A DNA stretch of 64,000 bases, from contig NZ_CP016756.1 in the NCBI RefSeq assembly GCF_001700965.1, forward strand, positions 3,958,501 through 4,022,500, in the 5' to 3' direction. Made by a program: the position numbers and the translations under genes. Of the stretch, positions 26,549 to 46,049 are shown piece by piece; position 1 is the stretch's first letter; each line of letters starts with the position of its first letter. The notes beneath the pieces are model-generated. The model did no database searches and was not told the DNA's origin. It saw nothing but the letters and a program-made list of their open reading frames with translations. This DNA comes from Stenotrophomonas nitritireducens. GTDB taxonomy: Bacteria; Pseudomonadota; Gammaproteobacteria; Xanthomonadales; Xanthomonadaceae.

Positions 26549-26564
26549 GCCAGCGATGAACAGT

Positions 26565-26583
26565 GCCCTGAGCCGCTCAGGGC
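26565..26583 (+). other. Intercistronic hairpin between nusA and infB
   Basis: GCCCTGAG (26565-26572) pairs perfectly with CTCAGGGC (26576-26583) around CCG. No U-run follows, so it may mark a processing or attenuation point inside the operon. Confidence 0.5.
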
Positions 26584-26643
26584 GTAGACTCCGCGCTGCC
26601 TTCGTTCGTGACGAGGGGGCGCAAACAAGATCATAGGATCCGA

Positions 26644-29283
26644 ATGTCGCAGCAAACCACCATCCGCAAGCTCGCCGAACTGGTCAACACGCCGGTCGAG
26701 AAACTGCTTGAACAGCTGTCCCAGGCCGGGATGAAGTTCAGCGGTCCCGACCAGGTCGTGACCAGTACCGAGAAAGTGAAGCTGCTTGGCTTCCTCCGCC
26801 GTTCGCACGGCAAGGAAGAGCAGCCGGTCGAAGAGGCTGATGCCGCATCGAAGAAGATCACCCTGAACCGCCGCAAGCATCAGGAAGTGACCGTCAGTGC
26901 TGGCCGTAGCAAGACCACCGTCAATGTGGAAGTGCGCCAGAAGCGCACCTACACCAAGCCGGAAGGTGGCAAGCCTGCGATGACGCCGGACGAAGAGCGC
27001 GCCGATATCCTGCGCAAGCTCGAGGAATCGCGTCAGCGCAATCTCGACGAGCAGCGCATGCTGGCCGAGAAGGACCGCGCCCGCGACGAGAACATCGCAG
27101 CTAAGAAGGCCGCTGAAGAGGCCGAGCGCGCCCGCGTCGAAGCCGAGAAGCTGGCCGCTGAAGAGGCCGCCAAGGCTGCTGCTGCAAAGCCGGCACCGGC
27201 CGCTGTGGAAGCCGAAGCTCCGGCCCGTACCGCGCGTCACGCCCCGGCAGCTGCTGCCCCGGCACGCGCACCGGTGCGCGAGGATCGCGGCAACAACAAC
27301 ACCAATGCCAACGCCAAGCCCGGCAAGCGCAACGAAGGTGGTGATGGCAACCGTTTCGGTGGCCAGCTGCACCTGTCGGCGTCTGATCGTGCCCGTCGTG
27401 GCAACAGCAACAACAATAATTCGCGCGGTCGTCCGGGTGCACGTGCACCGCAGGGCCGTCGTGGCAATGACGCATCGCGCAGCGGTGGCGGCAGCCATGC
27501 CTTCGAACGTCCGACCGCACCGGTGGTGCGTGAAGTCGCCGTCGGTGACACCATCACCGTGGCCGATCTGGCCCAGAAGCTTGCCCTGAAGGGCGGCGAG
27601 GTGGTCAAGGCGCTGTTCAAGATGGGCGTGATGGCCACCATCACCCAGTCCATCGATCACGACACCGCCGCACTGGTTGTCGAAGAGCTCGGCCACAAGG
27701 TTGTGCGCGCCAATGCCAACGATGCCGAAGACGCACTGCTGGCCATCAGCGATGGTGACGAGCGCGTGGCCGTGCCGCGTGCGCCGGTGGTGACCATCAT
27801 GGGTCACGTCGACCACGGCAAGACCTCGCTGCTGGATTACATCCGCCGCACCAAGGTTGCCAATGGCGAAGCCGGCGGCATCACCCAGCACATCGGTGCT
27901 TACCACGTGACCACGCCGAAGGGCGTGATCAGCTTCCTCGACACCCCGGGCCACGCCGCGTTCACCTCGATGCGTGCCCGCGGTGCGCAGCTGACAGATA
28001 TCGTAGTGGTGGTGGTTGCCGCCGACGATGGCGTGATGCCGCAGACCAAGGAAGCCATCCAGCACGCCCGTGCTGCCAATGCGCCGATCGTGGTCGCCAT
28101 CAACAAGATCGACAAGGCCTCGGCCGACCCGATGCGCGTCAAGAACGAACTGCTCGCCGAGCAGGTTGTTGCCGAAGACTTCGGTGGTGACGTGCAGATG
28201 GTGGAGATCTCGGCCAAGACCGGCCTGGGCATCGACGACCTGCTGGATGCGATTTCTCTGCAGGCCGAAGTGCTCGAGCTCAAGGCCGTGGCCGAAGGCC
28301 GCGCCAGCGGCGTGGTCATCGAATCCTCGCTGGACAAGGGCCGTGGCCCGGTCGCGACGGTGCTGGTGCAGCAGGGCGTCCTGAAGAAGGGCGACTACCT
28401 GGTGTGCGGCATCCAGTACGGTCGCGTGCGTGCGCTGTTCGACGAAACCGGCAGCCAGGTGGCTGAAGCGGGTCCGTCGATTCCGGTGCAGGTACTGGGT
28501 CTGTCCGGCGTGCCGGAAGCCGGCGACGACTTCGTCGTGGTGGAAGACGAGCGCCTGGCCAAGGACGTCGCGCAGACGCGTGAAACCAAGCGTCGTGAGT
28601 CGCGTCTGGTCGCCACTGCGGGCAGCCGCATGGAAGACATCATGGCGCAGCTGGGCAAGGGCGAAGGCCAGCAGGTGCTGAACCTGCTGATCAAGGCCGA
28701 TGTGCAGGGTTCGGTGCAGGCACTGAGCCAGGCGCTGGTCGCGCTGTCCAACGACGACATCCGCATCAACGTGATCCACTCCGGCGTGGGCGGCATCACC
28801 GAGTCCGACGCCAACTCGGCCGTGGCCTCCAAGGCCACCGTCATCGGCTTCAACGTGCGTGCGGATGCTTCGGCCCGCCGCATCATTGAATCCAACGGCG
28901 TTGACCTGCGTTACTTCTCGATCATCTATGACGTGATCGACCAGGTGAAGCAGGTGGCTTCCGGTCTGCTCGGCGTGGAAATCCGCGAAGAGATCATCGG
29001 TATCGCCCAGGTCCGCGACGTGTTCCGCAGCTCGAAGTTCGGTGCGGTTGCAGGCTGCATGGTCATCGAAGGCGTGGTGAAGCGGAACAAGCCGATCCGC
29101 GTGCTGCGCGACAGCGTGGTGGTGTTCGAAGGCGAGCTGGAATCGCTGCGTCGCTTCAAGGAGAACGTCGAGGAAGTTCGCAACGGTACCGAGTGCGGTA
29201 TCGGCGTGAAGGCTTACAACGACATCAAGCCGGGCGACCAGATCGAGTGCTTCGAGCGTATCGAAGTGCCGCGCACGCTGTAA
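26644..29283 (+). CDS. infB: Translation initiation factor IF-2
   Basis: IF-2 is the GTPase that places initiator fMet-tRNA on the 30S subunit and promotes 50S joining. An IF2_N domain starts the protein ([20 protein letters not shown]). A charged coiled region and an Ala/Asn/Arg-rich linker (about 120-290, with runs such as NNNTNANA and SNNNNSRG) follow, then a second IF2_N domain near 300. The G domain has GHVDHGKTS (G387), DTPGHAAF and NKID, followed by domains II-IV. Length is 879 residues from the ATG at 26644. Confidence 0.97.
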
Positions 29284-29355
29284 CTGCTGGCAGCGGGTGT
29301 TGGTCAGGGTGCGCTGAAGCGCGTCCCGGCGGACGCCCCTCCGCTGGCGGGGTTG

Positions 29356-29402
29356 GGGAACCGGGAGTTGTGGCCGTGCATTCGGCCCTGCGAACGGTTC
29401 CC
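29356..29402 (+). other. Long hairpin between infB and rbfA
   Basis: GGGAACCG (29356-29363) pairs with CGGTTCCC (29395-29402), and an inner GGCC/GGCC pair (about 29372-29386) extends the structure. No U-run follows. The 164 bp infB-rbfA gap holds no convincing gene. Confidence 0.45.
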
Positions 29403-29447
29403 TTCCGGTTTCATTGATATTCACTCCTTAATGTTGATACTTGCCTG

Positions 29448-29837
29448 ATGCCTAAGACTTTCCATCGTACCGACCGTGTTTCCGCACAGATCCGCCGTGA
29501 TCTGGGCACGCTGGTGCATGCCGCCGTGCGTGAATTCGGGCTGCCCTCGGTCAGCGTGTCGGACGTGGAAGTCACCCGCGACATGGCCCACGCCAAGATC
29601 TACGTGACCGCGTTGATGCCGGAACGTTCGGCCGAGGCCATGAAGGGGCTGCGTGAATTGGCCGTTGAGCTGCGCATGTCGCTGGCCAAGGCAATGAAGC
29701 TGCGGCACGTGCCGGAACTGCATTTCCACTACGACGATTCGGTCGACCGTGGTGAGCGTATCGACAATCTGCTGCGCGACCTGGTGCCGCCGCCGGAACC
29801 CGAGTCCGACGCCGACAAGGACGCCGACAAAGCCTGA
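29448..29837 (+). CDS. rbfA: 30S ribosome-binding factor RbfA
   Basis: RbfA is a cold-shock ribosome biogenesis factor acting on the 5' end of 16S rRNA in late 30S assembly. The KH-like fold is seen in RTDRVSAQIRRDLGTLVHAA, VSDVEVTRDMAHAKIYVTAL and the C-terminal RHVPELHFHYDDSVDRGERI. Length is 129 residues with an acidic tail. The infB-rbfA-truB order is standard. Confidence 0.96.
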   Translation: MPKTFHRTDRVSAQIRRDLGTLVHAAVREFGLPSVSVSDVEVTRDMAHAKIYVTALMPERSAEAMKGLRELAVELRMSLAKAMKLRHVPELHFHYDDSVDRGERIDNLLRDLVPPPEPESDADKDADKA

Positions 29838-29840
29838 TCG

Positions 29841-29862
29841 CAACAGCCCGAAAGGGCTGTTG
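29841..29862 (+). terminator. Terminator-like hairpin between rbfA and truB
   Basis: CAACAGCCC (29841-29849) pairs with GGGCTGTTG (29854-29862) around a GAAA tetraloop. The following TCATG has no U-tract, so strong termination is doubtful. It could attenuate or protect the transcript ahead of truB. Confidence 0.5.
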
Positions 29863-29951
29863 TCATGTCTGGCCTGCGCACGATGGCGCAGGTGCTTTCC
29901 CTGTTTTCCCGCCGCCGCGCCGAAGGTGCGCCGGCTCGCCCATGGTGTTGC

Positions 29952-30863
29952 ATGCGTCCTCGAATCCAATTCCGCCGTCTGGACGGCATCGTTCTGCTCG
30001 ACAAGCCGGCTGGCATGAGCTCCAACACGGCCTTGCAGGTTGCGCGTCGTCTGTTCCGCGCCGAAAAGGGTGGGCATACCGGCAGCCTGGACCCGCTGGC
30101 CACAGGCCTGCTGCCGCTGTGCTTCGGTGAAGCCACCAAGATCGCCGGCCTGTTGCTGGGCTCGGCCAAGGCCTACGACGCCGAAATCCGGCTGGGCAGC
30201 ACCACCGATACCGACGATGCCGACGGCGTTGTGCTGCGCGAGCGGCCGGTGCCGGCGTTCAGTGATGAACAGCTGCAGGCGGCCTTGGCCAGCCTGACTG
30301 GCACTATCCGGCAACGTGCGCCGATCTATTCGGCCCTGAAGCAGGGCGGTGAGCCGCTGTACGCCAAGGCGCGCCGCGGCGAGGCCATCGAGGCGCCCGA
30401 GCGCGAGGTGCTGGTGCAGTCGATCGAGGTGCTGGTGCGTGAAGACGCGCGTCTGTCGCTGCGCGTAACCTGCGGTTCGGGCACCTACATCCGCAGCATC
30501 GCCCGTGACCTGGGCGAGCTGCTGGGCTGTGGCGCGCATGTCACCGCGCTGCGCCGGCTGTGGGTTGAACCGTTCATGGCGCCGAAGATGATTGGCCTGG
30601 ATGCGCTGCGCGCGGTGGCCGAATCCGGTGACGAGGCGACGCTGATGGGCTGGTTGCTGCCGATCGAGCAGGGCTTGACCCAGTTTGCCCGGGTCGACCT
30701 GGATGCTGCGCAGGCGGCGCGGTTCTGCCTTGGCCAGCGGTTGCGTGACCCGGCCTGGCCGGTCGGCCTGGTGGTGGTTCATGGTGAACATGGCCAGCCG
30801 CTGGGCCTGGGCCAGGTTGAAGAAGGCGGGCGATTGGGCCCGCAACGCATCTTCAATCTCTGA
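29952..30863 (+). CDS. truB: tRNA pseudouridine(55) synthase TruB
   Basis: TruB makes the pseudouridine at position 55 in the T-loop of almost all tRNAs. The N terminus has [14 protein letters not shown], and the catalytic aspartate is D47 in [15 protein letters not shown]. Later blocks are [17 protein letters not shown] and [18 protein letters not shown], followed by a small C-terminal domain. Length is 303 residues from the ATG at 29952; an upstream in-frame ATG near 29865 would add a basic extension overlapping a hairpin and looks less likely. Confidence 0.95.
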
Positions 30864-30903
30864 ACGGGCAGGGGCGGACCGTACCTTCGCGGTCACGTTC
30901 ACC

Positions 30904-30932
30904 TTGTCCCGGATGGTTGTGACCGTTACAAT
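30904..30932 (+). promoter_or_regulatory. Sigma70-type promoter for rpsO-pnp
   Basis: TTGTCC (30904-30909), a 17-base spacer and TACAAT (30927-30932) form a good sigma70 promoter 114 bases before rpsO. This matches the separate rpsO promoter known at this locus in E. coli and leaves a leader of about 105 bases. Confidence 0.7.
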
Positions 30933-31045
30933 TTTGCGGCCCTATAAAGGGCAACTGCCCGCCTCCGGTGGGCAGCCTATTAATCGGCGAGCTGAGTGGT
31001 GCGTCCAGAGACGTTCCTGCCGGCCCCGCATCTGAAGAGAAAATC

Positions 31046-31306
31046 ATGTCGATCGACACCCAGAAAGTCATTGAAGAAAACAAGCGCGGCGCTGCCGACA
31101 CCGGTTCCCCGGAAGTGCAGGTCGCCCTGCTGACCGCTCGCATTGAACTGCTGACCGGCCACTTCAAGGAACACAAGAAGGATCACCACAGCCGCCGTGG
31201 TCTGCTGCAGATGGTCAACCGCCGCCGTAGCCTGCTCGACTACCTGAAGAACAAGGATGTCGCACGTTACAAAGCATTGATCGAAAAGCTCGGCCTGCGC
31301 CGCTAA
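31046..31306 (+). CDS. rpsO: 30S ribosomal protein S15
   Basis: S15 binds 16S rRNA in the central domain and organises the 30S platform. It has 86 residues with the diagnostic [20 protein letters not shown] and [20 protein letters not shown]. The ATG at 31046 gives the standard length; the upstream open frame lies in the leader. In several bacteria S15 represses its own mRNA through the leader; that is possible here but not readable by eye. Confidence 0.98.
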
Positions 31307-31315
31307 TCGATATCC

Positions 31316-31349
31316 GCCGCGGCGCAGCGATGCGCCGCGGCTTTGTTTT
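31316..31349 (+). terminator. Terminator between rpsO and pnp
   Basis: GCCGCGGCGCA (31316-31326) pairs perfectly with TGCGCCGCGGC (31331-31341) around a GCGA tetraloop and runs into TTTGTTTT. This is a strong Rho-independent terminator. As in E. coli, some readthrough to pnp is expected. Confidence 0.85.
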
Positions 31350-31452
31350 AAGCGCTTCAAAATCGTAGTAGACCGGCCGGAACCGCCCGGCCAGCCGCTG
31401 CCGACATGGGTTGGCACCGGACCAATCGAAGAAAGCATTTCAAGGATCCCCC

Positions 31453-33561
31453 GTGGCAAAAATCACCAAAACCTTCCAGTACGGCAAACACACCGTCACG
31501 CTTGAAACCGGCGAAGTCGCCCGCCAGGCCGGCGGCGCTGTCATCGTCAAGATGGATGACACCGTGTTGCTGGTCACTGCCGTCGCCGCCAAGAGCGCGC
31601 GCGAAGGGCAGGACTTCTTCCCGCTGACTGTTGATTACCAGGAAAAGTTCTACGCCGGTGGCCGTATCCCGGGTGGCTTCTTCAAGCGTGAAGGCCGTGC
31701 GACCGAGAAGGAGACGCTGATTTCGCGTCTGATCGATCGCCCGATCCGCCCGCTGTTCCCGGAAGACTACAAGAACGAAGTGCAGATCATCGCCACGGTG
31801 ATGTCGCTGAACCCGGAAGTGGACGGCGACATCGCTGCCCTGATCGGTGCCTCGGCTGCACTGTCGCTGGCCGGCACCCCGTTCAAGGGCCCGATCGGCG
31901 CTGCCAAGGTCGGTTACAAGGACGGCCAGTACATCCTCAACCCGACCGTGTCGGAGCTGAAGGAATCGCAGCTGGAGCTGGTGGTCGCGGGTACCGCCAA
32001 TGCCGTGCTGATGGTGGAATCCGAAGCCGCGCTGCTGTCCGAAGACGTGATGCTGGGCGCCGTGACCTTCGGTCACCGCGAAATGCAGAAGGTCATCAAC
32101 GCGATCAACGAACTGACCGTTGAAGCCGGCACCAAGCCGAGCGACTGGGTTGCCCCGGCCAAGAACAACGTGCTGATCAGCGCCCTGCAGGAAGCCGTCG
32201 GCAGCAAGCTCGGCGAAGCCTTCCAGGTGCGTGACAAGCTGCAGCGTCGCGACGCCATCTCGGCGATCAAGAAGGACGTGGTGGAAGCCCTGGCTGGCCG
32301 CGTTGCCGCTGAAGGCTGGAACCCGGCTGAAGTATCGAAGGAATTCGGCGAGCTGGAATACAGCACCATGCGCAACTCGGTGCTGGACACCAAGGTCCGC
32401 ATCGACGGCCGCGCCCTGGACACCGTCCGCCCGATCGCGGTCAAGACCAGCGTGCTGCCGCGTACCCACGGCTCGGCCCTGTTCACCCGCGGCGAGACCC
32501 AGGCCATCGTGACGATCACGCTGGGCACCGCACGCGACGGCCAGATCATTGACGCCGTTGCCGGTGAGTACAAGGAAAACTTCCTGTTCCATTACAACTT
32601 CCCGCCCTACTCGGTCGGTGAGTGCGGTCGTTTCGGTGCGCCGAAGCGTCGTGAAATCGGCCACGGCCGTCTGGCCAAGCGCGGTGTGCTGGCTGTGATG
32701 CCGTCGCTGGAAGCCTTCCCGTACACGATTCGCGTTGTGTCGGAAATCACTGAATCCAACGGCTCCTCGTCGATGGCTTCGGTCTGCGGTTCCTCGCTGG
32801 CCCTGATGGACGCCGGCGTGCCGGTCAAGTCGCCGGTGGCAGGTATCGCCATGGGTCTGGTCAAGGAAGGCGAGCGCTTCGTCGTCCTGTCCGACATCCT
32901 GGGTGACGAAGATCACCTGGGCGACATGGACTTCAAGGTCGCTGGTACCGCCGAGGGCATCTCCGCCCTGCAGATGGATATCAAGATCGAAGGCATCACC
33001 GAAGAGATCATGAAGCAGGCACTGCAGCAGGCCAAGGCTGGCCGTCTGCACATCCTGGGCGAAATGGCCCATGGCCTGACCTCGCCGCGCGCCGAACTGT
33101 CGGATTACGCGCCGCGTCTGCTGACGATCAAGATCCACCCGGACAAGATCCGCGAAGTGATCGGCAAGGGTGGCTCGACCATCCAGGCCATCACCAAGGA
33201 AACCGGCACCCAGATCGACATCCAGGACGATGGCACCATCACCATCGCTTCGGTGAACAACGCCGCTGCCCAGGCCGCCAAAGCCCGCATCGAGCAGATC
33301 ACCTCGGACGTCGAGCCGGGCCGCATCTACGAAGGGAAGGTCGCCAAGATCATGGACTTCGGTGCGTTCGTCACCATCCTGCCGGGCAAGGACGGTCTGG
33401 TCCACGTATCGCAGATCTCCAGCGACCGCGTCGAGAAGGTCGGCGACGTGCTGAAGGAAGGCGATGTGGTCAAGGTCAAGGTGCTGGAAGTCGACAAGCA
33501 GGGCCGTATCCGCCTGTCGATGAAGGCCGTGGAAGAAGGCGAGGGCACCCCGGCCGAATAA
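31453..33561 (+). CDS. pnp: Polyribonucleotide nucleotidyltransferase (PNPase)
   Basis: PNPase is the 3'-to-5' phosphorolytic exoribonuclease of mRNA decay. Two RNase PH domains are visible (first with [20 protein letters not shown], second with [15 protein letters not shown] and [16 protein letters not shown]), joined by an all-helical linker, then a KH domain ([20 protein letters not shown]) and an S1 domain ([19 protein letters not shown]). The GTG at 31453 has AGGA (31443-31446) upstream and gives 702 residues; an upstream in-frame ATG would add an unconserved leader. Confidence 0.97.
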
Positions 33562-33587
33562 GGCTGCGGTGTTGTATCGCTGAGAAG

Positions 33588-33617
33588 AAAAGCGGGCCTG
33601 GTGCCCGCTTTTCTTTT
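33588..33617 (+). terminator. Terminator after pnp
   Basis: AAAAGCGGGC (33588-33597) pairs with GCCCGCTTTT (33603-33612) around CTGGT and is followed by CTTTTG. This is a clear Rho-independent terminator closing the rpsO-pnp unit. Confidence 0.9.
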
Positions 33618-33679
33618 GCCTGAAAAACGGCGGAGCCTGCCAACCAATGCGTAGCGCACAAGCGAGGCAGCGTGCACAT

Positions 33680-34200
33680 GTAGTACCGAGCCATGCTCGG
33701 CACAGGCCATCCAAGCAAACCCGCAGCCGCGTTTGTAGGAGCGGCGTAAGCCGCGAAGCCAGTGGAATCGAAACGCCCCAAATCCCTGCAATCTGATCGG
33801 CCACCAGCTTCGCGGCTGACGCCGCTCCCACAAGAGCATTCCCCGCAAACCCCAACACCGCGGTAGTGCCGAGCCATGCTCGGCAGGAGCCATCCAAGCA
33901 AACCTTCGACCGTTTGTGGGAGCGGCGTAAGCCGCGAAGCCAGTGGAATCGAAGCGCCCGAAATCCCTGCAATCTGATCGGCCACCAGCTTCGCGGCTGA
34001 CGCCGCTCCCACAAGCATGTTCCCGGCAAGCCCCAGCGCATGCAGTGCCGAGCCATGCTCGGCAGAGGCGGTCCAAGCAAACCCGCAGCGCTTTGTAGGA
34101 GCGGCGTCAGCCGCGAAACCAGCAGCGCAGAAGTACCTGCCACTTCTGCAATCTGATCGACCACCAGCCTCGCGGCTGACGCCGCTCCCACAAACAGATT
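33680..34200. repeat. Three tandem copies of a ~180 bp SMAG + inverted-REP unit
   Basis: Three units start at 33680, 33863 and 34042 (spacing 183 and 179 bp). Each has, in order, a SMAG hairpin (core CCGAGCCATGCTCGGCA), the phrase CCAAGCAAAC(C), a REP-like palindrome (GGAGCGGCGT[A/C]AGCCGCGAA), a spacer with AATCTGATCG[G/A]CCACCAG, and an inverted REP (CGCGGCTGACGCCGCTCCCAC). The REP pair can fold into a long stem. Copies one and two are nearly identical; the third diverges more. It fills most of the 795 bp between pnp and comEC, and I see no gene in it. Confidence 0.85.
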
Positions 34201-34356
34201 CCTGCAAACAGATTCCCGCAAGCGGGTTTTCGGCAAAAACCGCCGCAACTCGACGACGTCCAGCAACCGACAACCCTGATCTTCCACCGCCGGTTTCTGC
34301 CGATGGAATTCCAGGCCATGCCTGCCAGCATTTCCACGGGGTAAACGGAGGTGCAT

Positions 34357-36761
34357 ATGGCTCGGTCAGGCGGGGGCGTGGGGCCGGGTCATGCACCGGT
34401 GGCCTTCGCAGGAAAGGCCGTCGCCATCTGTTTTCTGGCCGGGATCTGCATGGCAATCCTCGCGCCTGGTCTGCCGCCGGCCGGCCTGCGCTGGATGGTG
34501 TTGGTGGTGGGCATGTTTCTGTGGCTGGCCAGCCCGCGTTGGCGCTGGCTGGGTGCGTTGCTGGCCGGAATGGGGCGTGCCTGCACGCGGGCTGGAGCCT
34601 GGATCAACAGCTTCCGCTTGGCTGGGAGGGGCAGGAAGCTTCCGTGATTGGCGTCGTGACCAGCCTTCCGCAGCATGAAACCCGACGCACCCGTTTCCAG
34701 TTGCGGTTAGACAATGATCCAGCCCAATCGGCAGAACTGCGAGGGCGCACCGTGCAGGTGTCCTGGTACGACGACTTCGGCGCAACCGAACCTGGTCCAC
34801 GCATCCACGTACGGGCTGGCGAGCGTTGGCGGCTCGGTCTGCGCCTGCGCGCACCGCGCGGGCTGGTCAATCCCGGCGGCTTTGACGCCGAGCGCCATGC
34901 CTTGGCGCAGGGCGTGTCCGCCAGTGCCATCGTGCGGCAGTCGCCAATGCCGCAGCGCTTGTCGTCAGCTACGGGCCTTGGTGCCTGGCGCGAGCAGATG
35001 GCAGCGCGGATCAAGGCGCAGGTGCCTGCCGGATCTTCCCGCTACGTGCAGGCGTTGGCGCTGGGTGACACGCGTGCGCTGGGGGAGACTGACTGGCAGG
35101 TGCTGCGCGCTACGGGGCTGACCCATCTGATTGCCATCTCCGGTTTCCACGTCGGCATGGTCGCGCTGTTTGCCGCATGGCTGGTGGCCGGCGTCTGGCG
35201 GCTGTTGCCGTGGTGTGGGCGCTACTGCCCGCGGCCACAGGCGGTGGCCATCGGTGCGCTGGCCGGTGCCACGCTGTACGCCGCGGTGGCCGGTTTTGGC
35301 CTGCCCACGGTGCGAACGGTCTTGATGGTGGCGGTGGTGGTGATGGCGCGGCTCGGTCGCCGGCCGGTGGACGTGGCTGCGGCGCTCGCGCTGGCCGCGC
35401 TGGCGGTGCTGTGTATGGCACCGTTGTCGGTGTTGACGGCCGGGTTCTGGCTCAGTTTCGCCGGCGTGGCGTGGCTGTTGTGGTGCCTGCCCGAACGCGG
35501 GCATTGGCTGCGTAGTTTTCTTTCGGCGCAGCGGGTGGCGACCCTGGGTCTGCTGCCGCTGACGGTGCTGCTGTTCGGCCAGGCCTCGGCGATTGGTCCG
35601 CTGGCCAATCTGCTGGCGATCCCGTGGTGGAGCCTGGTGGTTGTGCCGTTGGCGTTGATCGGGACAGCGCTGGAGGCCGCTTGCAGTGGCGCGGGCGGTT
35701 TTGCCTGGCGTGCATCGGCGTGGTGCTTCGATCTGAGCTGGCCGCTGTTCCAGGTGTTGGGTGATGGCCGCTACTCGCTGTGGTGGTTGCCCGAACCGGC
35801 CTGGTTCGCGCTGCCCTTGGCCTTGGCGGCAGCGATCTGGTTGCTGCTGCCTGCGGGCCTGCCGGGCAAATACCTGGCGATGCTGCTATGGCTGCCGCTG
35901 TGTATGCCATGGCGTGACAGGGCGAATGCCGGTGAGTTTGAGCTGATCGCCTTGGATGTGGGCCAGGGCTTGGCGGTGGTGGTGCGCACCGGTCATCACG
36001 CCTTGTTGTTCGATGCAGGGCCTGCGGTGGCCGACGGCTTCGATGCCGGGGAGCGGGTGGTGGTGCCGGCGTTGCGGGCCTTGGGCGTGTGGCAGCTGGA
36101 CAAGGTGGTGGTCAGCCATGGTGATCACGACCACGCTGGTGGCGTGGCCGCAGTGCAGGCGGTGGTGCCGTCGCACAGTATCTCGGCACCGCCCGGCTTG
36201 GTATTGCCACAGCCGACGGGGGCTGCCTGTGAGGCGGGGCAGGTATGGCACTGGGACGGAGTGCGCTTCGAGTTTCTGCATCCCACGCCCGGCTTCCCCT
36301 ATCTGGGCAACGAGTCCAGTTGCGTGCTACGGGTTCAGGGAGCCTACGGCACGGCCCTGTTGACCGGAGATATCGGTGAGGTGATCGAGCAACGCCTGCT
36401 CAAGCAAGCACCGGCAATGCTGCGCGCCGAAGTCGTGCTGGTGGCGCACCATGGCAGCGGCGGTTCTTCCAGCCCCGCTTTTGTGGCAGCAACCGCCGCG
36501 CGCCTAGCCTTGATCTCCAGCGGGCATGGCAACCGTTTCGGTCATCCGCGACATGACGTGGTTCGTCGATGGCAGCGCAATGGTGCCGAGGTGCTGACCA
36601 CGGCCGGCAGTGGTGCGCTGCAGGTCTGGTTCGGTGAGGCGGGGCTACAGGTACGGGAGCGCAGAATCTGGCGTTCAAGACTGTGGGATGCCGCTGAGCG
36701 GGCGCGGGCGGCTGCTATCCTATCTGACATCGAAAACGCGGCCACGGCGCCGGAGGGTTGA
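34357..36761 (+). pseudogene. comEC: comEC DNA-uptake channel protein, frameshifted as given
   Basis: ComEC forms the inner-membrane channel for single-stranded DNA in natural transformation. The N terminus (34357 to about 34575) reads in one frame: MARSGGG, then hydrophobic segments and GALLAGMG. The rest reads in another frame to 36761: ACLHAGWSLDQQLPL, the competence helices (THLIAISGFHVGMVALFAAW, FGLPTVRTVLMVAVVVMA), and a metallo-beta-lactamase-like domain (VVSHGDHDHAGG). One extra G in the run at 34572-34575 would join them as GMGACLHAGW and give about 801 residues, normal for ComEC. RBS GGAGG (34346-34350) precedes the ATG. It could be a true mutation, a sequencing error in the G-run, or slippage. 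Confidence 0.85.
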
Positions 36762-36764
36762 AAC

Positions 36765-37427
36765 GTGTGGGAATTGGTCAAAGCCGGCGGATGGCCGATG
36801 GTGCCGTTGCTGCTGTTGGGCGTGCTGGCATTGGCCATCGTTCTGGAGCGTTTCTGGAGCCTGCGGCGTAACGAGGTGCTGCCGCCGGGTCTGGGGCAGG
36901 AAGTCCGCAACTGGGCCGCACGCGGCAAGCTGGACGCCACCCACATCGATTCCCTGCGTGCCAACTCGCCGCTGGGCGCGTTGCTGGCCGCCGCACTCGA
37001 GGCACGCAACCGTCCGCGCGACCAGATCCGCGAACGCATTGAAGATACCGGGCGCCATCTGGTGCACCGGATGGGCCGCTTCCTCAACGCGCTGGGCACC
37101 ATCGCCTCGGCTGGCCCGTTGCTGGGCCTGCTGGGTACGGTGGTCGGCATGATCCAGATGTTCCTGGGCATTCTTGACCACGGCGTCGGCGATGTGGGCC
37201 AGTTGGCCGGCGGCATCGGCAAGGCGCTGGTGTGTACCGCGACCGGCATGATGGTCGCGATTCCGGCCTTGATGTTCCATCGCTATTTCCGTGGCCTGAT
37301 TGATGGCTACGTGATCGAGATGGAACAGGAAGCAGCCGCGCTGCTGGATGCACTTGATGGCCGGCCCGCGGTGATGGCCGCCAGCAAGGCTGCGGCGCCG
37401 CGCCCGGCGGCGACTGAAAAGGCCTGA
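36765..37427 (+). CDS. exbB: MotA/TolQ/ExbB-type proton channel protein
   Basis: A 220-residue TolQ/ExbB-family inner-membrane protein that with ExbD uses the proton gradient to energise an envelope process. Three hydrophobic helices are visible: about residues 10-28, 112-135 (ASAGPLLGLLGTVVGMIQMF) and 155-178 (GGIGKALVCTATGMMVAIPA). It starts three bases after comEC and is followed closely by exbD and msbA. The pairing with msbA-lpxK is common in this lineage, so the motor may serve envelope lipid transport rather than TonB, but that is inference. Confidence 0.92.
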   Translation: MWELVKAGGWPMVPLLLLGVLALAIVLERFWSLRRNEVLPPGLGQEVRNWAARGKLDATHIDSLRANSPLGALLAAALEARNRPRDQIRERIEDTGRHLVHRMGRFLNALGTIASAGPLLGLLGTVVGMIQMFLGILDHGVGDVGQLAGGIGKALVCTATGMMVAIPALMFHRYFRGLIDGYVIEMEQEAAALLDALDGRPAVMAASKAAAPRPAATEKA

Positions 37428-37431
37428 GCCC

Positions 37432-37854
37432 ATGCGTATTGCCAGCAATCGCACGCAGGATGAGCCGCATATCGATCTGGTGCCGTTGATCGACGTGATC
37501 CTGGTGCTGATCATTTTCTTCGTGGTCACCACCACCTTCGATGCGCGCTCGACGCTGCAGGTGCAACTGCCCACCGCCAGCGACCAGAAAACCTCCGCGC
37601 CGCAGAGTTCGTTGAGCGTGCTCGTCAATGCCGATGGCCGTTACTTCGTCAATGATCAGGAAGTGTTGCGCACCGACATCGAATCGCTGAAGCAGATTGT
37701 CGCGCAGCTGGCCGGTGCTGATCGCGAACAGACGGTGCTGCTGCGCGCCGATGCGCGTACGCCATACCAGGCCGTGGTGACCGCGCAGGATGCACTGGGC
37801 CAGCTCGGCTTTCGTCGTATTGCCATTGCTACCGCACCGGAAGCAAAGCAATGA
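37432..37854 (+). CDS. exbD: ExbD/TolR-family biopolymer transport protein
   Basis: A 140-residue partner of the preceding ExbB-like protein. It has a short cytoplasmic N terminus, one transmembrane helix (HIDLVPLIDVILVLIIFFVV, about 14-33) with the proton-path aspartate, and a periplasmic domain (VLVNADGRYFVNDQEV, FRRIAIATAP). It overlaps msbA by four bases (ATGA), indicating tight coupling to lipid A export. Confidence 0.93.
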   Translation: MRIASNRTQDEPHIDLVPLIDVILVLIIFFVVTTTFDARSTLQVQLPTASDQKTSAPQSSLSVLVNADGRYFVNDQEVLRTDIESLKQIVAQLAGADREQTVLLRADARTPYQAVVTAQDALGQLGFRRIAIATAPEAKQ

Positions 37855-39596
37855 ACGACAACGCGTCGGCCTGGAAGGTCTACAAACGCTTGCTGGGCTT
37901 TGCCAAGCCCTATAGGCCGCTGTTGTTGATCGCCGGTGTGGGTATGCTGGTCGAAGCGGGCGCAGGCATGGGCTTTTTGGCGTTGATGAGCCCGATCACC
38001 AACAACCTGGTGAATCCGGAGGACATCAATCCCTGGATGCCGCTGGCCGTCATTGGATTGTTTCTGGTCCGTGGCGCTGCGGGCTACCTGACTGACATGG
38101 GCATGGGTAAGGCTGCACGCAGCATCGCCCGTGATTTCCGCGTACGCGTGCTTGGCAAATATCTGCGCCTGCCCGGTCAGCGCTTCGATGGCGAGCCGGT
38201 GCCGTCGATGTTGGTTCGGCTTGGCTCTGACAGCGATCAGGTGGCGCAGGCTGCGATTGATGCAATGAAGGTGGTATTGCAGCAATCGCTGCAGGCGCTT
38301 GGCTCGCTGATAATGATGTTCTATTACAGCTGGCAGGTGACACTGGCCATCTTCGTGCTGGCACCACCGTTGGCGTGGGTGATGAACAAGGTGGCAAAGC
38401 GCTACCGTCGCATCAGCCATCGTATCCAGGAGAGCGGGGCAGAGCTCCTGCAGGCAGCAGATCAGGCGCTGTCCAGCCATCAGGAAGTAAAAATTTACGG
38501 TGCACAGCCCAGTGAAATGGGCCGCTATTCGGCGCTGGCCAACAACAATCTTCGCTTGGCGATGAAGGTGGAAGGCACTCGCAGTATTTCCTCCGGCATG
38601 GTGCAGTTGATCGGTGCCATCGGGCTGGCCGCGTTGCTGTTCATTGCGGGCCATGAGGCTGCAGCCGGTCGCTTGACCGTGGGTGACTTCGTCTCGCTAC
38701 TGATGGCGATGCTGACCATCATTCCCGCGCTCAAGCAGCTCACCAACGTGCAGAACATGACCCAGCGCGGCATCGCCTCGGCGCAGCGCCTGTTCCATGT
38801 TCTTGATGCCGAAGATGAGGCTGACGTGGGCAGTCTGCCGTTGCAGCGCGCCACTGGCCTGCTTGAGTTCCGCCACGTCACCGCCCGCTACGCGGGGCAG
38901 GACAAGCCGGCGCTGCAGGACATCAGTTTCGTTGCCCGCCCTGGAACAGTGACCGCGATTGTGGGCCGTTCGGGCAGCGGCAAATCCACCCTGATCAAGC
39001 TGATTCCGCGCTTCTATGAGATCGAGGCCGGGGAAATCCTGCTCGATGGTCACCCCCTGCAGGCCTACCGGCTGGCCGACCTTCGTCGGCAGATCGCCCT
39101 GGTTGGCCAGCAGGTCACCTTGTTTAACGGCAGCATCGCCGAGAACGTGGCCTATGGCGAGTTGCAGGAGCGCAGCGAGGCGGAGTTGCAGCACGCCATC
39201 GAGGGCGCAAACGCCAGCGAGTTCGTCGAGCAGCTGCCGCAGGGCGTGGATGCACCAGTGGGAGCGAAGGGCAGCCGTCTGTCCGGCGGCCAGCGGCAAC
39301 GTCTGGCCATTGCGCGCGCAATGCTGAAAGATGCGCCCATCCTGATCCTGGACGAAGCCACCGCCGCTCTGGACAACGAATCCGAGCGGCTGGTACAGGA
39401 CGCGCTGCAGAAGCTGATGCCCGACCGCACCACCCTTGTCATCGCCCATCGTCTGTCCACCATCGAGCATGCGGACCAGGTGCTGGTGATGGACCAGGGC
39501 CGTATCGTTGAACGTGGCACCCACGCCGAGTTGCTGGCAATGGGCGGCTTGTACGAACACCTGCATAGCATGCAGTTCCGCGACAGGCAGGACTGA
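37851..39596 (+). CDS. msbA: Lipid A export ABC transporter MsbA
   Basis: MsbA flips lipid A-core across the inner membrane. The N-terminal half (about 1-320) has six transmembrane helices. The ATPase domain has Walker [10 protein letters not shown] (372-380), signature [10 protein letters not shown], Walker B ILILDEAT, and the H-loop VIAHRLST. Length is 581 residues, and the fused permease-ATPase matches MsbA. The stop shares one base with the lpxK ATG, the conserved msbA-lpxK pair. Confidence 0.96.
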
Positions 39597-40618
39597 TGGC
39601 CAAGCAAGGACCGCAAACGCCGGCCTACTGGTATGGCGACGCGCCGGTGCCGTTGTTCGCACGGCTGCTGGCACCGCTGTATGGCGCGCTTTCCGGCCTG
39701 CGCCGCAACCTCTACCGGCGCGGCTGGCTGCGTGCCCGGCAGGTGCCGCTGCCGGTCATCGTGGTGGGCAACATCACCGCCGGTGGCACCGGCAAGACGC
39801 CGTTGACCATCGCGCTGGTCAACCGCCTGCGCGAAGCTGGCTGGAAGCCGGGTGTGGCCAGCCGTGGCTATGGCCGTGATGAGGCCGATACCGCGCGTTG
39901 GGTCACCGCCGATATGGATGTGCGTCTGGGCGGCGACGAGCCGGTGCTTATCGCCTGGAAAACCGGGGTGCCGGTACGGGTGGACAAGGACCGGGTCGCG
40001 GCGGCCAAGGCGCTGCTGGAGGCTGGTTGCGACGTGGTGGTCTGTGACGACGGCCTGCAGCATTACCGGCTGGCGCGTGATATCGAAATCGAAGTGATCG
40101 ATGCGGTGCGTCGCTATGGCAACGGGCGGCTGTTGCCGGCCGGGCCGCTGCGTGAGCCGGTGGCGCGGGCTGCACATTGCGACTTCCGTGTGGTCAACCT
40201 GGGCCAGGCCAGCGATGCGCCGGATCAGGTGGCGGAATGCGGCTTTGGCGAGTGGGCCATGCGCTTGTCGATCGAGGCGGCGCGGCCCTTGAAGGGCGGT
40301 CGCGACAAACCGTTGAAGGCGTTCGCGGGGCTGCGGGTACATGCAGTGGCCGGTATCGCCAACCCGCAGCGGTTTTTCCAGATGCTGCGCAGCCGCGATA
40401 TCGGTGTGGTGCCGCATGCCTTTGCCGACCATCACCGCTATACGCCGCAGGACCTGTCGTTCGGCAGCGAACTGCCGGTGTTGATGACCGAAAAGGACGC
40501 CGTCAAATGCCAGGCCTTTGCCACGGCGTGGCATTACGCGGTGCCGTTGCAGGCCGAGTTGCCGGCGGCATTCTGCATCGCCTTGCTGGATCGTCTGGGT
40601 AAGCTGGCCCGCGCCTGA
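39596..40618 (+). CDS. lpxK: Tetraacyldisaccharide 4'-kinase
   Basis: LpxK phosphorylates the 4' position of the lipid A disaccharide to make lipid IVA. The N terminus has a hydrophobic segment, then a P-loop in [15 protein letters not shown] (near residue 60) and [22 protein letters not shown] [19 protein letters not shown] near 146 is the usual metal/substrate region. Length is 340 residues. Confidence 0.96.
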
Positions 40619-40650
40619 TACGGGTGGGCCGCGCGTTGGAAGGAGTTGAG

Positions 40651-41424
40651 ATGAGCGTTGTTGCTGAATTTGTGGTGGCCATTCCGGCCCGCTATGCCTC
40701 CACCCGCCTGCCCGGCAAGCCCCTGGCGCTGATCGCCGGCGAGCCGATGGTGCTGCACGTGGCGCGCCGCGCCCTGGCTGCCGGCGCCCGCGAGGTCTGG
40801 GTGGCGACCGACGATGCGCGCATCGCGCAGGCGGTGGCGGGCTTGCCCGGCATTCATGTGGCGATGACCGACCCGGCGCACGCCTCCGGTACTGATCGGC
40901 TGGCCGAATGCGCCCGCCAGGCAGGCTGGGCGGACGATGTCATCGTGGTGAACCTGCAAGGGGATGAGCCGTTCGCGCCGGCAGCCGGCATCCGTGCGGT
41001 GGCGGACATCCTCGCTGACAGCGGCGCGCCCATGTCCACCCTGGCCACGCTGGTCGAGGATGCGCCCACCTTGTTCGATCCGAATGTGGTCAAGCTGGTG
41101 CGCAGCACGCAGGGGGATGCGTTGTATTTCAGCCGCGCACCAATTCCCTGGCACCGCGATGGCTTTGCCCGCAGCCGTGACAGCCTGCCGCCGGCGCAGT
41201 GGCTGCGGCATATCGGCATCTATGGCTACCGCGCCGGCTTCCTGCAGACGTTCGCAGCCATGCCGCCCGGCAATCTTGAACAGATCGAGTCGCTGGAGCA
41301 GCTGCGGGTACTGGAGGCGGGCTACCGGATTGCCGTGGGAATGTCGCCCGCGCCATTTCCGCCGGGTATCGATACCCCGGAAGACCTGCTGCGCGCCGAC
41401 GTGCAGATGCGGGCAGCGCCTTGA
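40651..41424 (+). CDS. kdsB: 3-deoxy-manno-octulosonate cytidylyltransferase
   Basis: KdsB activates Kdo to CMP-Kdo for the LPS inner core. The nucleotidyltransferase N terminus is [41 protein letters not shown] and YFSRAPIPW follow. Length is 257 residues from the ATG at 40651, with AAGGAG (40640-40645) as RBS. The position after lpxK groups lipid A and Kdo steps. Confidence 0.96.
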
Positions 41425-41912
41425 AATTGCTGGTGGTCTGCCTGGGCAACATCTGCCGCTCGCCGATGGGAGAGGGTGCCTTGCGGGCACGGATCGCCGA
41501 GGCAGGGCTGGATGGCTGGGTGCAGGTCGACTCGGCTGGCACCTCCGGTCATTGGCACGCCGGGCGCGGCCCCGACCCTCGAGCTGTTGCCTGCGCGCAC
41601 GGCCATGGCGCGGATATTTCCGGCCAGCGCGCGCGCCAGCTGCTGGCCGAGGATTTCGAGGAATACGATCTGATTCTGTGTGCGGACGGCGCGAACCTGC
41701 GTGACGCCCAGGCATTGGCGCCTGCGGGCTTGGCCACGCGGGCGGTGCTGTGGCTGCCGTGGGCTGGCATCACCGGCAGTGACGTGATTCCGGACCCCTA
41801 TTACGGTGATGTGAAAGATTTCGAGCACAGCTGGGCACTGATCGATGCTGCGGCCCAGGTCACGGTGCGGCGCCTGTCGCGACGCGAGGACTCCGGCATA
41901 ATCCCAGCATGA
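41421..41912 (+). CDS. Low-molecular-weight protein tyrosine phosphatase
   Basis: A 163-residue LMW-PTP-fold phosphatase. The catalytic P-loop CLGNICRS gives C7-x5-R13, and the general acid loop is DPYYGD near residue 125. These enzymes dephosphorylate tyrosine kinases of polysaccharide export or arsenate/other substrates; the neighbours here (kdsB, an NHL protein) do not settle the target. A TTG at 41421 overlaps the kdsB stop (TTGA), and it is the only start that keeps the P-loop. Confidence 0.88.
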
Positions 41913-43324
41913 ACGAAACCCGCGTATTGGAACTGCCCACTTCCGCCATCTGGCTCAACGCAGCGCCGGTGAGCCTGCAGGATTTGCGTGGGCGTCCGCT
42001 GGTACTGGCCTTCGTCAACGGTGCATCGGTGTGGTGCATGCAGCGCCTGGCCGATGTCAGGCGCTGGCAGGCACGCAACCCGGGCCGGGTACAGTTGCTG
42101 GTGGTGCAGGTGCCGCGATTCGAGTTCGAGCGCGAGCCGCAGCATGCCTTGAAGCTGTTGCGTCGGCAGGGCGTAAGTGCGCCCATCGTGCTGGATGCGC
42201 AGTGGGATGCATGGCGGCGGTTTGACGTGCAGTCCTGGCCGACCTTGGTGATGCTGGATGGTTACGGCCAGGAGCGCGAGCGGCTGGTAGGCGCGTCCGG
42301 TGACCTGGAGCGCGCCTTGAACAGCCTTAGCGAAGGCGTGTCGCGGCCGCTGGATGACGACGGCGACGGTATCCGCGAAATCAATGCCGAACCGCGCCTG
42401 CCGTTGCTGTTTCCGGCCGGGCTGGTAGCCACCGCCGACCGCTTGTACGTGGCCGACACCGGCCATCATCGAATTCTGGAATGCACCCATGCCGGCCGCG
42501 TGCTGCGCCAGTTCGGTCTGGGCAGTGCCGACCTGATCAATGGCGGGCTTGGCGAGGCCGCCTTCAATCGCCCGCAGGGCCTGACCTTGGTGCGCGAGAT
42601 CCTGTATGTGGCCGATACCGGCAACCATGCCCTGCGCAGCATCAACCTGATCAGCGGGCAGGTGGATACCTTGTGCGGTAACGGCCGCGCGGGCGACCCG
42701 CGCGCCGGGGTGCTGGCGCAGCCGTGGGACAGCCCACTCAATCATCCGGCCGCGGTGGCGGTGGCTGACAATCAGATCCATATCGCCATGGCCGGCGACA
42801 ACCATATTTGGAGCTACGACCTGGGCAGCCGCGAGCTGCGTTGGCGGGCGGGCGCCGGCGCGGTGGAAGTGCGTGATGGCAGTGGCCATCTGGCGGCATT
42901 CGCGCAGCCCAGCAGCCTGGTTGCCGTCCAGCAGACCCTGTATGTCTGCGATTCGCTTGGCTCTGCAATCCGCTCGGTGCAGTTGCGCGGTGATCTCGTG
43001 CAGACGCTGGTCGGGCAGGGCCCGTGGGAATCGGGCAATGTCGACGGGCCGCGCCTGCGTGCGCGCCTGCAATATCCCCTGGCATTGGCGATGGGGCCGG
43101 ATTCGCCGCTGCTGTGGATCGCAGATGCGGGTAACGGCTCGCTGCGTACCTTGCGCCTGGGCGGCGGCGATCTGTCTACCGTCAATCTGCCGCGTCGCCT
43201 GCATGGCCCGGCCGCATTGGCAGTGGCGGCGGGTGCCATCTGGATCGCCGAGGCCGACGCGCATGCCGTGCTGCGGTTTGATCCGCTCAGTGGCGAATTG
43301 AGTGAAGTGCCGATAGAAGGATGA
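41909..43324 (+). CDS. Thioredoxin-like/NHL beta-propeller fusion protein
   Basis: A 471-residue protein with two parts. Residues about 1-140 look like a degraded thioredoxin fold (LRGRPLVLAFVNGASVWC; VQSWPTLVMLDGYG), but the active site is WCMQ, not a CxxC pair. Residues about 165-470 carry NHL-type repeats with blocks such as GLVATADRLYVADTGHHRIL, GLTLVREILYVADTGNHALR and LWIADAGNGSLR. The pairing recalls NHLRC2-type proteins. No signal peptide is evident. It overlaps both neighbours by four bases, so it is in an operon with the phosphatase and uvrC. The function is unknown. Confidence 0.85.
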   Translation: MNETRVLELPTSAIWLNAAPVSLQDLRGRPLVLAFVNGASVWCMQRLADVRRWQARNPGRVQLLVVQVPRFEFEREPQHALKLLRRQGVSAPIVLDAQWDAWRRFDVQSWPTLVMLDGYGQERERLVGASGDLERALNSLSEGVSRPLDDDGDGIREINAEPRLPLLFPAGLVATADRLYVADTGHHRILECTHAGRVLRQFGLGSADLINGGLGEAAFNRPQGLTLVREILYVADTGNHALRSINLISGQVDTLCGNGRAGDPRAGVLAQPWDSPLNHPAAVAVADNQIHIAMAGDNHIWSYDLGSRELRWRAGAGAVEVRDGSGHLAAFAQPSSLVAVQQTLYVCDSLGSAIRSVQLRGDLVQTLVGQGPWESGNVDGPRLRARLQYPLALAMGPDSPLLWIADAGNGSLRTLRLGGGDLSTVNLPRRLHGPAALAVAAGAIWIAEADAHAVLRFDPLSGELSEVPIEG

Positions 43325-45168
43325 CCGACGTAGTCGCCAATGAGTTCGATGGCAAGGCGTTTGCCGCGGCGTTGAGTACTGCGCCCGGTGTGTACCGGAT
43401 GTACGCCGCTGACGATACCTTGCTGTATGTGGGCAAGGCCGGTGCGCTGCGCAAGCGCGTCGGCAGTTATTTCAACGGCTCGCCGAAGAGCCGGCGCATC
43501 ATGATGATGCTGTCGCAGGTGGCGCGGATGGACGCCACGGTTACCCGTACCGAGGCCGAAGCGCTGCTGCTGGAAAACCAGCTGATCAAGTCGCTGAACC
43601 CGCGCTACAACGTGTCGCTGCGCGACGACAAAACCTATCCGCAGGTGTTGCTGACCCGTGAGCAATGGCCGCGCATCGCCCTGCATCGGGGGCCGCGTGC
43701 AGTGCCTGGGCGGTACTACGGGCCGTATCCCGGTGTCGGCGCGGTACGCGAAACGCTGAACCTGATGCACAAGCTGTTCAAGCTGCGCAGCTGCGAAGAC
43801 AGCGTGTTTCGCAACCGCTCGCGGCCCTGTCTGCAATATCAGATCGGCCGTTGCAGCGGCCCCTGCGTGGAGCTGGTGCCGCAGGCCGAGTACGACGAGT
43901 CGGTGCGGCGTGCGGCGATGTTCCTGGAAGGCAAGAGTGACCAGCTTGCCGCTGAACTGATGCAGGCCATGCAGCAGGCCAGCGACACACTGGACTTCGA
44001 GCGTGCCGCGCGGCTGCGCGATCTGGTGGCCTCGCTGCGCAGCATGCAGAACCGCCAGTATGTGGACGGGCGCGCCGCCGATCTGGACGTGCTGGCCTGC
44101 GCGTCCCAGGGCGCCAGCGCCTGCGTGATGTTGCTGGCGTTCCGTGACGGCCGCAATCTGGGTACGCGCGCGTTCTTCCCGCGTACCAATGGCGAAGACA
44201 GCGCCGAGGAAGTTCTGGCCGCGTTTGTCTCGCAGTACTACGTCGAGCATGAGCCGCCGGCTGAAGTGCTGCTGGATCGGCAGATTCCGGATGCGGAGAT
44301 GATCGAGGCCGCACTCAGTGCCTCGGCCGAGCGCAAGGTGGCGTTGAAATGGAACGTGCGCGGCGAACGCGCGGGTTATGTGGAACTGGCCAGCCGCAAC
44401 GCGCAGATCACCCTCGTGGCCGAGATGGACAGCGTTGGCGCGCAGCACGCGCGCAGCGAAGCGGTGCGCGAGCTGCTGGGCCTGGCCGAGCCGGTCAAGC
44501 GCGTGGAGTGCTTCGATATCAGCCACACCATGGGCGAAGCCACGGTGGCCTCGTGCGTGGTGTTTGATGCGGCCGGCCCGGTACGCGCGCAGTACCGGCG
44601 CTACAACATCAGTGGCATTGAGCCGGGCGACGATTACGCCGCCATGCGCCAGGCCATCGACCGGCGCTTCCGCCGTGCGGTGGAGGAGGGCGGGGTGCTG
44701 CCGGACGTGCTGCTGATCGACGGCGGTGCCGGGCAGCTTGCACAGGCCCAGGCGGCGCTGGCGGACCTGGGCGTGGAAGGCGTGACCCTGGTCGGCGTTG
44801 CCAAGGGGGTGGAGCGTCGCGCCGGTCACGAGGCGCTGGTGCTGCCCGATGGCCGCGAACTGCGTCCCGGCGCGGCCTCGCCGGCGTTGCAGTTCATTCA
44901 GCAGGTGCGGGACGAGGCCCACCGCTTTGCCATCACCGGCCACCGTGGGCGCCGTCAGAAGGCGCGCATGACCAGCAAACTGGAAGATATTCCCGGTATC
45001 GGGCCCCGCCGGCGCGCGAGCCTGCTCAAGCATTTCGGCGGAATTGCCGGCCTCAAGGCGGCAGGTGAGGCGGAAATCGCCCGCGTGGAAGGCATCAATG
45101 CCGCCCTCGCCGCACGTATCTACGCTAACCTTCATGGTCTGTCGGTGCCTGATCCGGCGGCGGAGTAA
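43321..45168 (+). CDS. uvrC: Excinuclease ABC subunit C
   Basis: UvrC makes both incisions in nucleotide excision repair. The N-terminal GIY-YIG domain shows PGVYRMYAADDTLLYVGKAG; a UvrB-binding UVR motif lies near 210-245 (LMQAMQQASDTLDFERAARL). The RNase H-like domain has CFDISHTMGEATVASCVVF and LLIDGGAGQLAQA, and tandem HhH motifs end the protein (LEDIPGIGPRRRASLLKHFG). Length is 615 residues, as usual. The uvrC-pgsA order is conserved in gammaproteobacteria. Confidence 0.97.
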   Translation: MTDVVANEFDGKAFAAALSTAPGVYRMYAADDTLLYVGKAGALRKRVGSYFNGSPKSRRIMMMLSQVARMDATVTRTEAEALLLENQLIKSLNPRYNVSLRDDKTYPQVLLTREQWPRIALHRGPRAVPGRYYGPYPGVGAVRETLNLMHKLFKLRSCEDSVFRNRSRPCLQYQIGRCSGPCVELVPQAEYDESVRRAAMFLEGKSDQLAAELMQAMQQASDTLDFERAARLRDLVASLRSMQNRQYVDGRAADLDVLACASQGASACVMLLAFRDGRNLGTRAFFPRTNGEDSAEEVLAAFVSQYYVEHEPPAEVLLDRQIPDAEMIEAALSASAERKVALKWNVRGERAGYVELASRNAQITLVAEMDSVGAQHARSEAVRELLGLAEPVKRVECFDISHTMGEATVASCVVFDAAGPVRAQYRRYNISGIEPGDDYAAMRQAIDRRFRRAVEEGGVLPDVLLIDGGAGQLAQAQAALADLGVEGVTLVGVAKGVERRAGHEALVLPDGRELRPGAASPALQFIQQVRDEAHRFAITGHRGRRQKARMTSKLEDIPGIGPRRRASLLKHFGGIAGLKAAGEAEIARVEGINAALAARIYANLHGLSVPDPAAE

Positions 45169-45175
45169 TGTTGTA

Positions 45176-45790: not shown

Positions 45791-45798
45791 ACAGGCTG

Positions 45799-45826
45799 TT
45801 GACACTGCTGCCAATGCATGTAGAAT
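45799..45826 (+). promoter_or_regulatory. Promoter of the tRNA-Gly cluster
   Basis: A perfect -35 TTGACA (45799-45804), a 16-base spacer and TAGAAT (45821-45826) lie just upstream of the first tRNA-Gly. This is a strong sigma70 promoter right after pgsA. Confidence 0.8.
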
Positions 45827-45838
45827 TTCGCCTCCCAA

Positions 45839-45914
<76 letters not shown>

Positions 45915-45973
45915 GTTTCAAGCGTCAGTCCATGTTTTTTGTGGGTTGGTGAGTAAATAGATGTAGCAAGCCT

Positions 45974-46049
<76 letters not shown>

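What the first reader, a model, noticed from the sequence alone, without database searches (positions are those of the whole stretch)
34357..34660. comEC is broken by a one-base difference in a G-run
The first about 73 codons of ComEC read in one frame and the remaining about 728 in another. Adding one G to the GGGG at 34572-34575 fuses them into a normal-length ComEC with a smooth GMGACLHAGW junction. Natural transformation depends on this protein, so the strain may be non-competent, or the run may be a switch or a sequencing error. The broken gene sits directly after a triplicated repeat array.
Basis: partly seen in the sequence, partly recalled or inferred. Interest (0 to 1): 0.72.

Follow-up and report, generated by a model that had tools for sequence, protein, structure and literature searches.

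The report
Recently broken DNA-uptake gene comEC
In this Stenotrophomonas chromosome the gene for the DNA-uptake channel ComEC has very probably lost four bases quite recently, which splits it into two reading frames; it looks like an ordinary loss-of-function mutation rather than a switch or a one-letter sequencing slip.

Summary
The two-frame comEC is real: ATG 34357 reads to TGA 34645-34647, and 728 further codons follow in another frame to 36761. All 19 relatives aligned are four nucleotides longer at the junction, and a complete 803-residue ComEC, 99% identical over the body, has there a tryptophan that the window lacks. The lesion is a net four-nucleotide deletion in the third predicted membrane helix, not a missing G. 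The assembly looks clean: over 464 kb a frame model leaves comEC as the only in-gene frame change not explained among those far from a stop, while the same model flags 5 to 13 breaks in each of three other Stenotrophomonas assemblies. Downstream codons still show constraint, so the break is young. Matches to comEA, dprA, pilQ, pilB and comM are over cut-off without stops. Best reading: a strain-level comEC null, a known kind of event. Reinitiation at a GTG overlapping the stop could give a shortened protein, but without the three leading helices. Reads and transformation could not be tested, nor whether the species is competent at all.

The parts
34347..34351 (+). GGAGG ribosome-binding site of comEC
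   Evidence: sequence, five bases before ATG 34357
34357..34647 (+). 5' piece of comEC, 96 codons and TGA; codons 1-73 are ComEC sequence, the rest is out of frame
   Evidence: translation; codons 2-73 are 68/72 identical to P0002
34571..34576 (+). place of the net four-nucleotide deletion (exact placement ambiguous, G repeats on both sides)
   Evidence: alignment with 19 relatives, P0002, frame model
34575..36761 (+). body of comEC in the other frame, 728 codons: rest of DUF4131, Competence, Lactamase_B
   Evidence: 719/728 identical to P0002; no internal stop and no gap against S. terrae
34644..34647 (+). GTGA: GTG in the body's frame overlapping the TGA of the 5' piece, AGGA seven bases upstream; possible reinitiation site
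   Evidence: sequence; null count
33680..34193 (.). array of 2.8 copies of a 179-bp unit with GTAG-tagged palindromes, in the pnp-comEC spacer
   Evidence: two copies in S. terrae
31411..33561 (+). pnp (polynucleotide phosphorylase), upstream neighbour; start uncertain
   Evidence: Pfam and TIGR03591
36765..40618 (+). downstream neighbours: MotA/TolQ/ExbB family, ExbD family, ABC exporter (msbA by recall), lpxK
   Evidence: Pfam

Best explanation
A genuine, recent deletion of net four nucleotides in the third membrane helix of comEC. Ribosomes starting at 34357 leave the ComEC frame after codon 73 and stop at codon 97, so no complete ComEC channel is made and transforming DNA should not cross the inner membrane. 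Shown: the frame break, its size against relatives, a complete near-identical protein elsewhere, other competence genes without stops, constraint on the downstream codons. Inferred: that the deletion is in the living strain and not only in the assembly, and that transformation is lost as a result.
For: 19 of 19 relatives aligned are four nucleotides longer. P0002, complete, 719/728 and 68/72 identical, has Trp75 at the junction; Trp75 in 31 of 33 proteins. Outside the window's own genome, all 39 loci with a match to the 5' piece have it in the frame of the adjoining body piece. Clean frame model over 464 kb, with noisy assemblies as contrast. Body: 13 nonsynonymous and 82 synonymous changes on the window branch against 18 and 74 on the S. 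terrae branch. comEA, dprA, pilQ, comM, pilB over cut-off, no stops. comEC is reported as needed for transformation in other bacteria (PMC7693049 and PMC11472951, passages; PMC12955456, section 15).
Against: No reads seen; one assembly only. The other members of P0002's cluster were not seen. Whether this species is naturally competent is unknown: Competence-domain proteins are near universal in bacteria (PMC6299819, passages), so the gene may have another use or none. A GTGA with a Shine-Dalgarno-like site could allow a shortened protein. comF scored below its cut-off, which most controls also do.
Confidence: 0.82

Rival explanations
1. Assembly or consensus error: the living strain has an unbroken comEC and four bases were lost in the deposited sequence.
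For: Body under constraint with no second lesion and a complete near-identical protein exists; both are expected under this reading too. No reads were available. Other assemblies of the genus do contain many false-looking breaks.
Against: Four bases is not the usual homopolymer error (general knowledge); frame model finds no other unexplained case far from a stop in 464 kb of this assembly; completeness 100, contamination 0.89.
Confidence: 0.12
2. The gene still works in part: translation is coupled, ribosomes stop at 34645 and restart at GTG 34644, or slip backwards by one base on the G run, giving a shortened or a near-full-length ComEC.
For: GTG overlaps TGA and AGGA lies seven bases upstream; only 7 of 256 out-of-frame stops in 27 window genes have both features. 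A one-base backward slip with GGG re-pairing on GGGG is possible on paper. Body under constraint.
Against: An overlapping start alone is common, 143 of 256, and the purine stretch is also present in the S. terrae gene, so it need not be selected. GTG 34644 is residue 99, after the three helices 21-36, 43-59 and 61-85 and inside the first strand 96-103. No slippery heptamer of the X XXY YYZ form at the break (by eye). Constraint is equally explained by a young break.
Confidence: 0.04
3. Phase-variable switch by slippage in a repeat tract.
Against: The alleles differ by four nucleotides, not by one G; 206 runs of four or five in the window; no tandem array at the break; none of the 19 relatives aligned has the short form.
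Confidence: 0.02

Closest known systems
ComEC/Rec2 DNA-uptake channel (TIGR00361; DUF4131-Competence-Lactamase_B)
   Same: Body carries all three domains, 336.5 bits against TIGR00361; near-identical complete protein exists
   Different: Not one open frame here; the leading helices are cut off by the frame break
comEC disrupted in Piscirickettsia salmonis with other competence genes kept (PMC12955456; abstract and section 15)
   Same: comEC broken, other transformation genes intact
   Different: There by transposable elements in all genomes and old; here by a four-base deletion in one assembly and young
Strain-level mutations that stop transformation, e.g. in Vibrio cholerae (PMC7693049; passages)
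   Same: Small mutation in single strains of an otherwise transformable group
   Different: There hapR frameshift and comM interruption; here comEC, and competence of the species not shown
GTAG/SMAG REP clusters of Stenotrophomonas (PMC3733652; passages)
   Same: GTAG-tagged palindromes in tandem in an intergenic spacer
   Different: The 179-bp unit also holds a second inverted repeat; its family was assigned by no call

Membership tests
ComEC/Rec2 | DUF4131, Competence and Lactamase_B domains | tested here: met
   body piece, three Pfam families over cut-off
ComEC/Rec2 | one continuous open frame including the leading membrane helices | tested here: not met
   frame change at 34572/34573
ComEC/Rec2 | needed for natural transformation in this organism | not testable with these tools
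   needs an assay
Phase-variable (contingency) gene | simple repeat tract at the site of the frame change | tested here: not met
   no tandem repeat at the break; four-G runs are common
Phase-variable (contingency) gene | alleles differ by whole repeat units | tested here: not met
   difference is four nucleotides to all 19 relatives
Programmed -1 frameshift | slippery heptamer X XXY YYZ | tested here: not met
   codons at the break read by eye
Programmed -1 frameshift | frame break conserved in relatives | tested here: not met
   none of 19 relatives has it; 39 loci keep one frame across the site
Old pseudogene | further lesions or lost codon constraint | tested here: not met
   no other stop or gap; 13 N / 82 S against 18 / 74
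Sequencing or assembly error | reads carry the longer form | not testable with these tools
   no reads; indirect evidence only

The most novel reading that the evidence does not exclude
The deletion turned comEC into a translationally coupled pair: a small peptide with the first helices, and a separately initiated 706-residue ComEC from GTG 34644 that still works to some extent, i.e. a two-piece DNA channel that does not need its three leading helices in the same chain.
Probability: 0.03. Interest if true: 0.45.

Novelty: new member of a known kind. Interest (0 to 1): 0.15.

Why it matters
It says that this strain is probably not transformable and that its comEC is disrupted by a small deletion rather than by a homopolymer error. 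With the lineage behind P0002 it offers a near-identical pair, with and without a complete comEC. It also shows that a repair read off a single sequence can be wrong even when the joined peptide looks smooth.

Tried and rejected
One-G homopolymer difference: rejected by relatives and by P0002. Repeat-tract switch: rejected. Second frame alone as a complete ComEC: its open frame runs back to 34017 into the repeat array, but homologues have the helices in the first frame.

Recurrent comEC loss across the genus: mostly not supported. In one search, 91 of 91 genomes match the body; besides the window's own, 11 are not a single unbroken match. Six (G012, G028, G030, G067, G077, G079) I took from their coordinates as cut at or near contig ends; three (G002, G037, G081) lie in assemblies full of frame breaks; G038 has one in-frame TAG in a 20-kb stretch without other suspicious breaks, and G054 a frame change in a fragment near a contig end. 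G016 and G021 have only a TGA matching residue 784 of 803, which I took as a different C-terminal end and did not count. Caveat: the query begins after the break, so it cannot see breaks further upstream in genomes whose loci were not fetched.

Faster protein change after the break: 13 residue differences from P0002; judged by P0003 and P0004, 5 fall on the window side, 3 on the P0002 side, 5 are unresolved: no clear excess. The PDB fold search matched the metallo-beta-lactamase part first and no full-length ComEC among the 50 rows shown; solved full-length ComEC chains exist by sequence. Paper searches for competence or comEC in Stenotrophomonas, for comEC frameshifts, for ComEC structure papers and for comEC pseudogenes in Xanthomonadaceae (0 papers): I saw no report of this lesion in the listings, and most listed papers were not opened. 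One review says S. maltophilia is naturally competent (PMC4379930, passages). comF: best match 100.6 bits, cut-off 233.55, reached by 2 of 14 controls: not informative. That TIGR00426 is ComEA-like and TIGR00368 ComM-like is recalled; that source 'lgn' means Logan is recalled too.

Limits of the frame model: the filter hides comEC itself, because the GTG overlapping its stop looks like a gene start; comEC stands in the list. Breaks whose out-of-frame stop comes within 25 nt are not caught by the rule. Three rows of this genome remain: L096, two different families that overlap, and L091 and L099, changes 3-4 nt from a stop with no start found near, not followed up.

Full report
What is there. 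The window lies in a single-contig chromosome of 4,541,729 bases, at 3,958,501-4,022,500. The nearest named relatives of its ComEC body are Stenotrophomonas terrae DSM 18941 (87% identity) and Stenotrophomonas sp. PS02298 (83%). comEC lies between pnp and a cluster of ExbB-family, ExbD-family, ABC exporter and lpxK genes. It starts at ATG 34357 behind GGAGG and reads in frame 1 to TGA 34645-34647, 96 codons. From 34575 a 728-codon stretch in another frame holds the DUF4131, Competence and Lactamase_B domains. A codon-usage frame model places the change at 34572/34573. The observation of two frames stands.

What broke it. At the junction 19 of 19 relatives that I aligned (16 Stenotrophomonas loci and three Pseudoxanthomonas, chosen from the loci in hand; the more distant loci were left out of that alignment) are four nucleotides longer, and 18 of 19 have a tryptophan codon there. 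The closest protein in the large collection, P0002 (803 residues, 11 member sequences), is 719/728 identical to the body and 68/72 to the 5' piece; it is complete, with tryptophan 75 at the junction. I take it to be of the same species or nearly so; no call names its organism. The window lacks that residue and one further base: a net deletion of four nucleotides, whose exact placement is ambiguous because G repeats flank it. Outside the window's own genome all 39 loci with a match to the 5' piece carry it in the frame of the adjoining body piece.

Is it an artefact? No reads were available. As a substitute I ran a frame model over the window and 20 stretches of 20 kb of the same genome, 464 kb or 10.2%. 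It found 121 same-strand frame changes, 12 of them more than 25 nt before the stop of the first gene. Of the 11 besides comEC, ten have a start codon of the next gene within -17 to +34 nt of that stop and the eleventh is an overlap of two unrelated families. comEC also has a start codon at its stop (the GTGA), but homology shows that its two pieces are one gene. The same model with a stricter filter, on assemblies whose comEC looked shattered, flags 13 breaks in 60 kb of G002, 9 in 60 kb of G081 and 5 in 20 kb of G037, against 3 rows in 464 kb here, none of them comEC because of the GTGA. So the test can see a bad assembly, and this one does not look like one. A four-base loss is also not the usual homopolymer error (general knowledge). 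I still keep 12% for an error.

How old? The body has no other stop and no gap against S. terrae. Codons that changed on the window branch, judged against S. terrae and PS02298, hold 13 nonsynonymous and 82 synonymous changes, against 18 and 74 on the S. terrae branch. Differences from P0002 show no clear excess on the window side. The break is therefore young, probably at strain level (inference).

What it does. The model of P0002 (mean pLDDT 79.2) begins with helices 21-36, 43-59 and 61-85, the last holding residue 75, then a first strand at 96-103 of the DUF4131 region, which is described as holding an OB fold (PMC6299819, passages). The 5' piece would make two helices and part of the third. 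In the body's frame a TTG at 34539 has no Shine-Dalgarno-like site by eye; GTG 34644 overlaps the stop as GTGA, with AGGA seven bases upstream, and corresponds to residue 99. Of 256 out-of-frame stops in 27 window genes, 143 overlap a start and 7 also have such a site: mildly unusual, but the purine stretch is also in the S. terrae gene. A protein from there would lack the helices that should carry the next domain across the membrane (inference). So I expect no working channel. comEA, dprA, pilQ, pilB and comM are present over their cut-offs without stops. In other bacteria comEC inactivation abolishes or strongly lowers transformation (PMC11472951 and PMC7693049, passages; PMC12955456, section 15). 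Against reading too much into it: Competence-domain proteins occur in most bacterial genomes whether or not they are known to be competent (PMC6299819, passages), and competence of this species is not shown.

The repeat array. The pnp-comEC spacer holds 2.8 copies of a 179-bp unit made of a GTAG-tagged palindrome and a second inverted repeat. S. terrae has two copies and G055 an array of GTAG palindromes, both with comEC unbroken at the junction. GTAG palindromes of S. maltophilia are known as SMAGs (PMC3733652, passages). I see no link between array and break.

Novelty. Loss of single competence genes by small mutations or insertions is known; P. salmonis gives a close parallel, with comEC broken and other genes kept (PMC12955456). 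I saw no report of this lesion in the listings. It is a new instance of a known kind and of low general interest. The boldest reading left open is a coupled two-piece ComEC (3%).

Noticed in passing
window 37851-39596 (ABC exporter, msbA by recall): 29 nonsynonymous and 84 synonymous changes on the window branch against 2 and 61 on the S. terrae branch; most residue differences lie in the membrane half. It may be a replaced or fast-changing allele.
   Followed up: partly
window 24368-46757: DNA identity to S. terrae is 95.7% over 24368-34015 and 88.6% over 33862-46757; pnp dS 0.08 against 0.64 in the comEC body. The step lies at the repeat array; expression-linked codon constraint or a recombination border could explain it.
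   Followed up: partly
window 45839-46183 and 50719-50941: Three tandem tRNA-Gly(GCC) genes, a fourth 4.5 kb further on beside tRNA-Cys.
   Followed up: no
L068 (G038:C13:38800-41800): Another Stenotrophomonas comEC with an in-frame TAG matching residue 95 of P0002, in a 20-kb stretch without other suspicious frame breaks: perhaps a second, independent comEC loss.
   Followed up: partly
L105, L106, L108, L110-L113 (G002, G081, G037): Three Stenotrophomonas assemblies with many in-gene frame breaks (13 in 60 kb, 9 in 60 kb, 5 in 20 kb); gene-loss claims from them need care.
   Followed up: yes
L091:12135-12214 and L099:16420-16488: Two same-strand frame changes in the window's own genome close to a stop with no start codon found near.
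   Followed up: no
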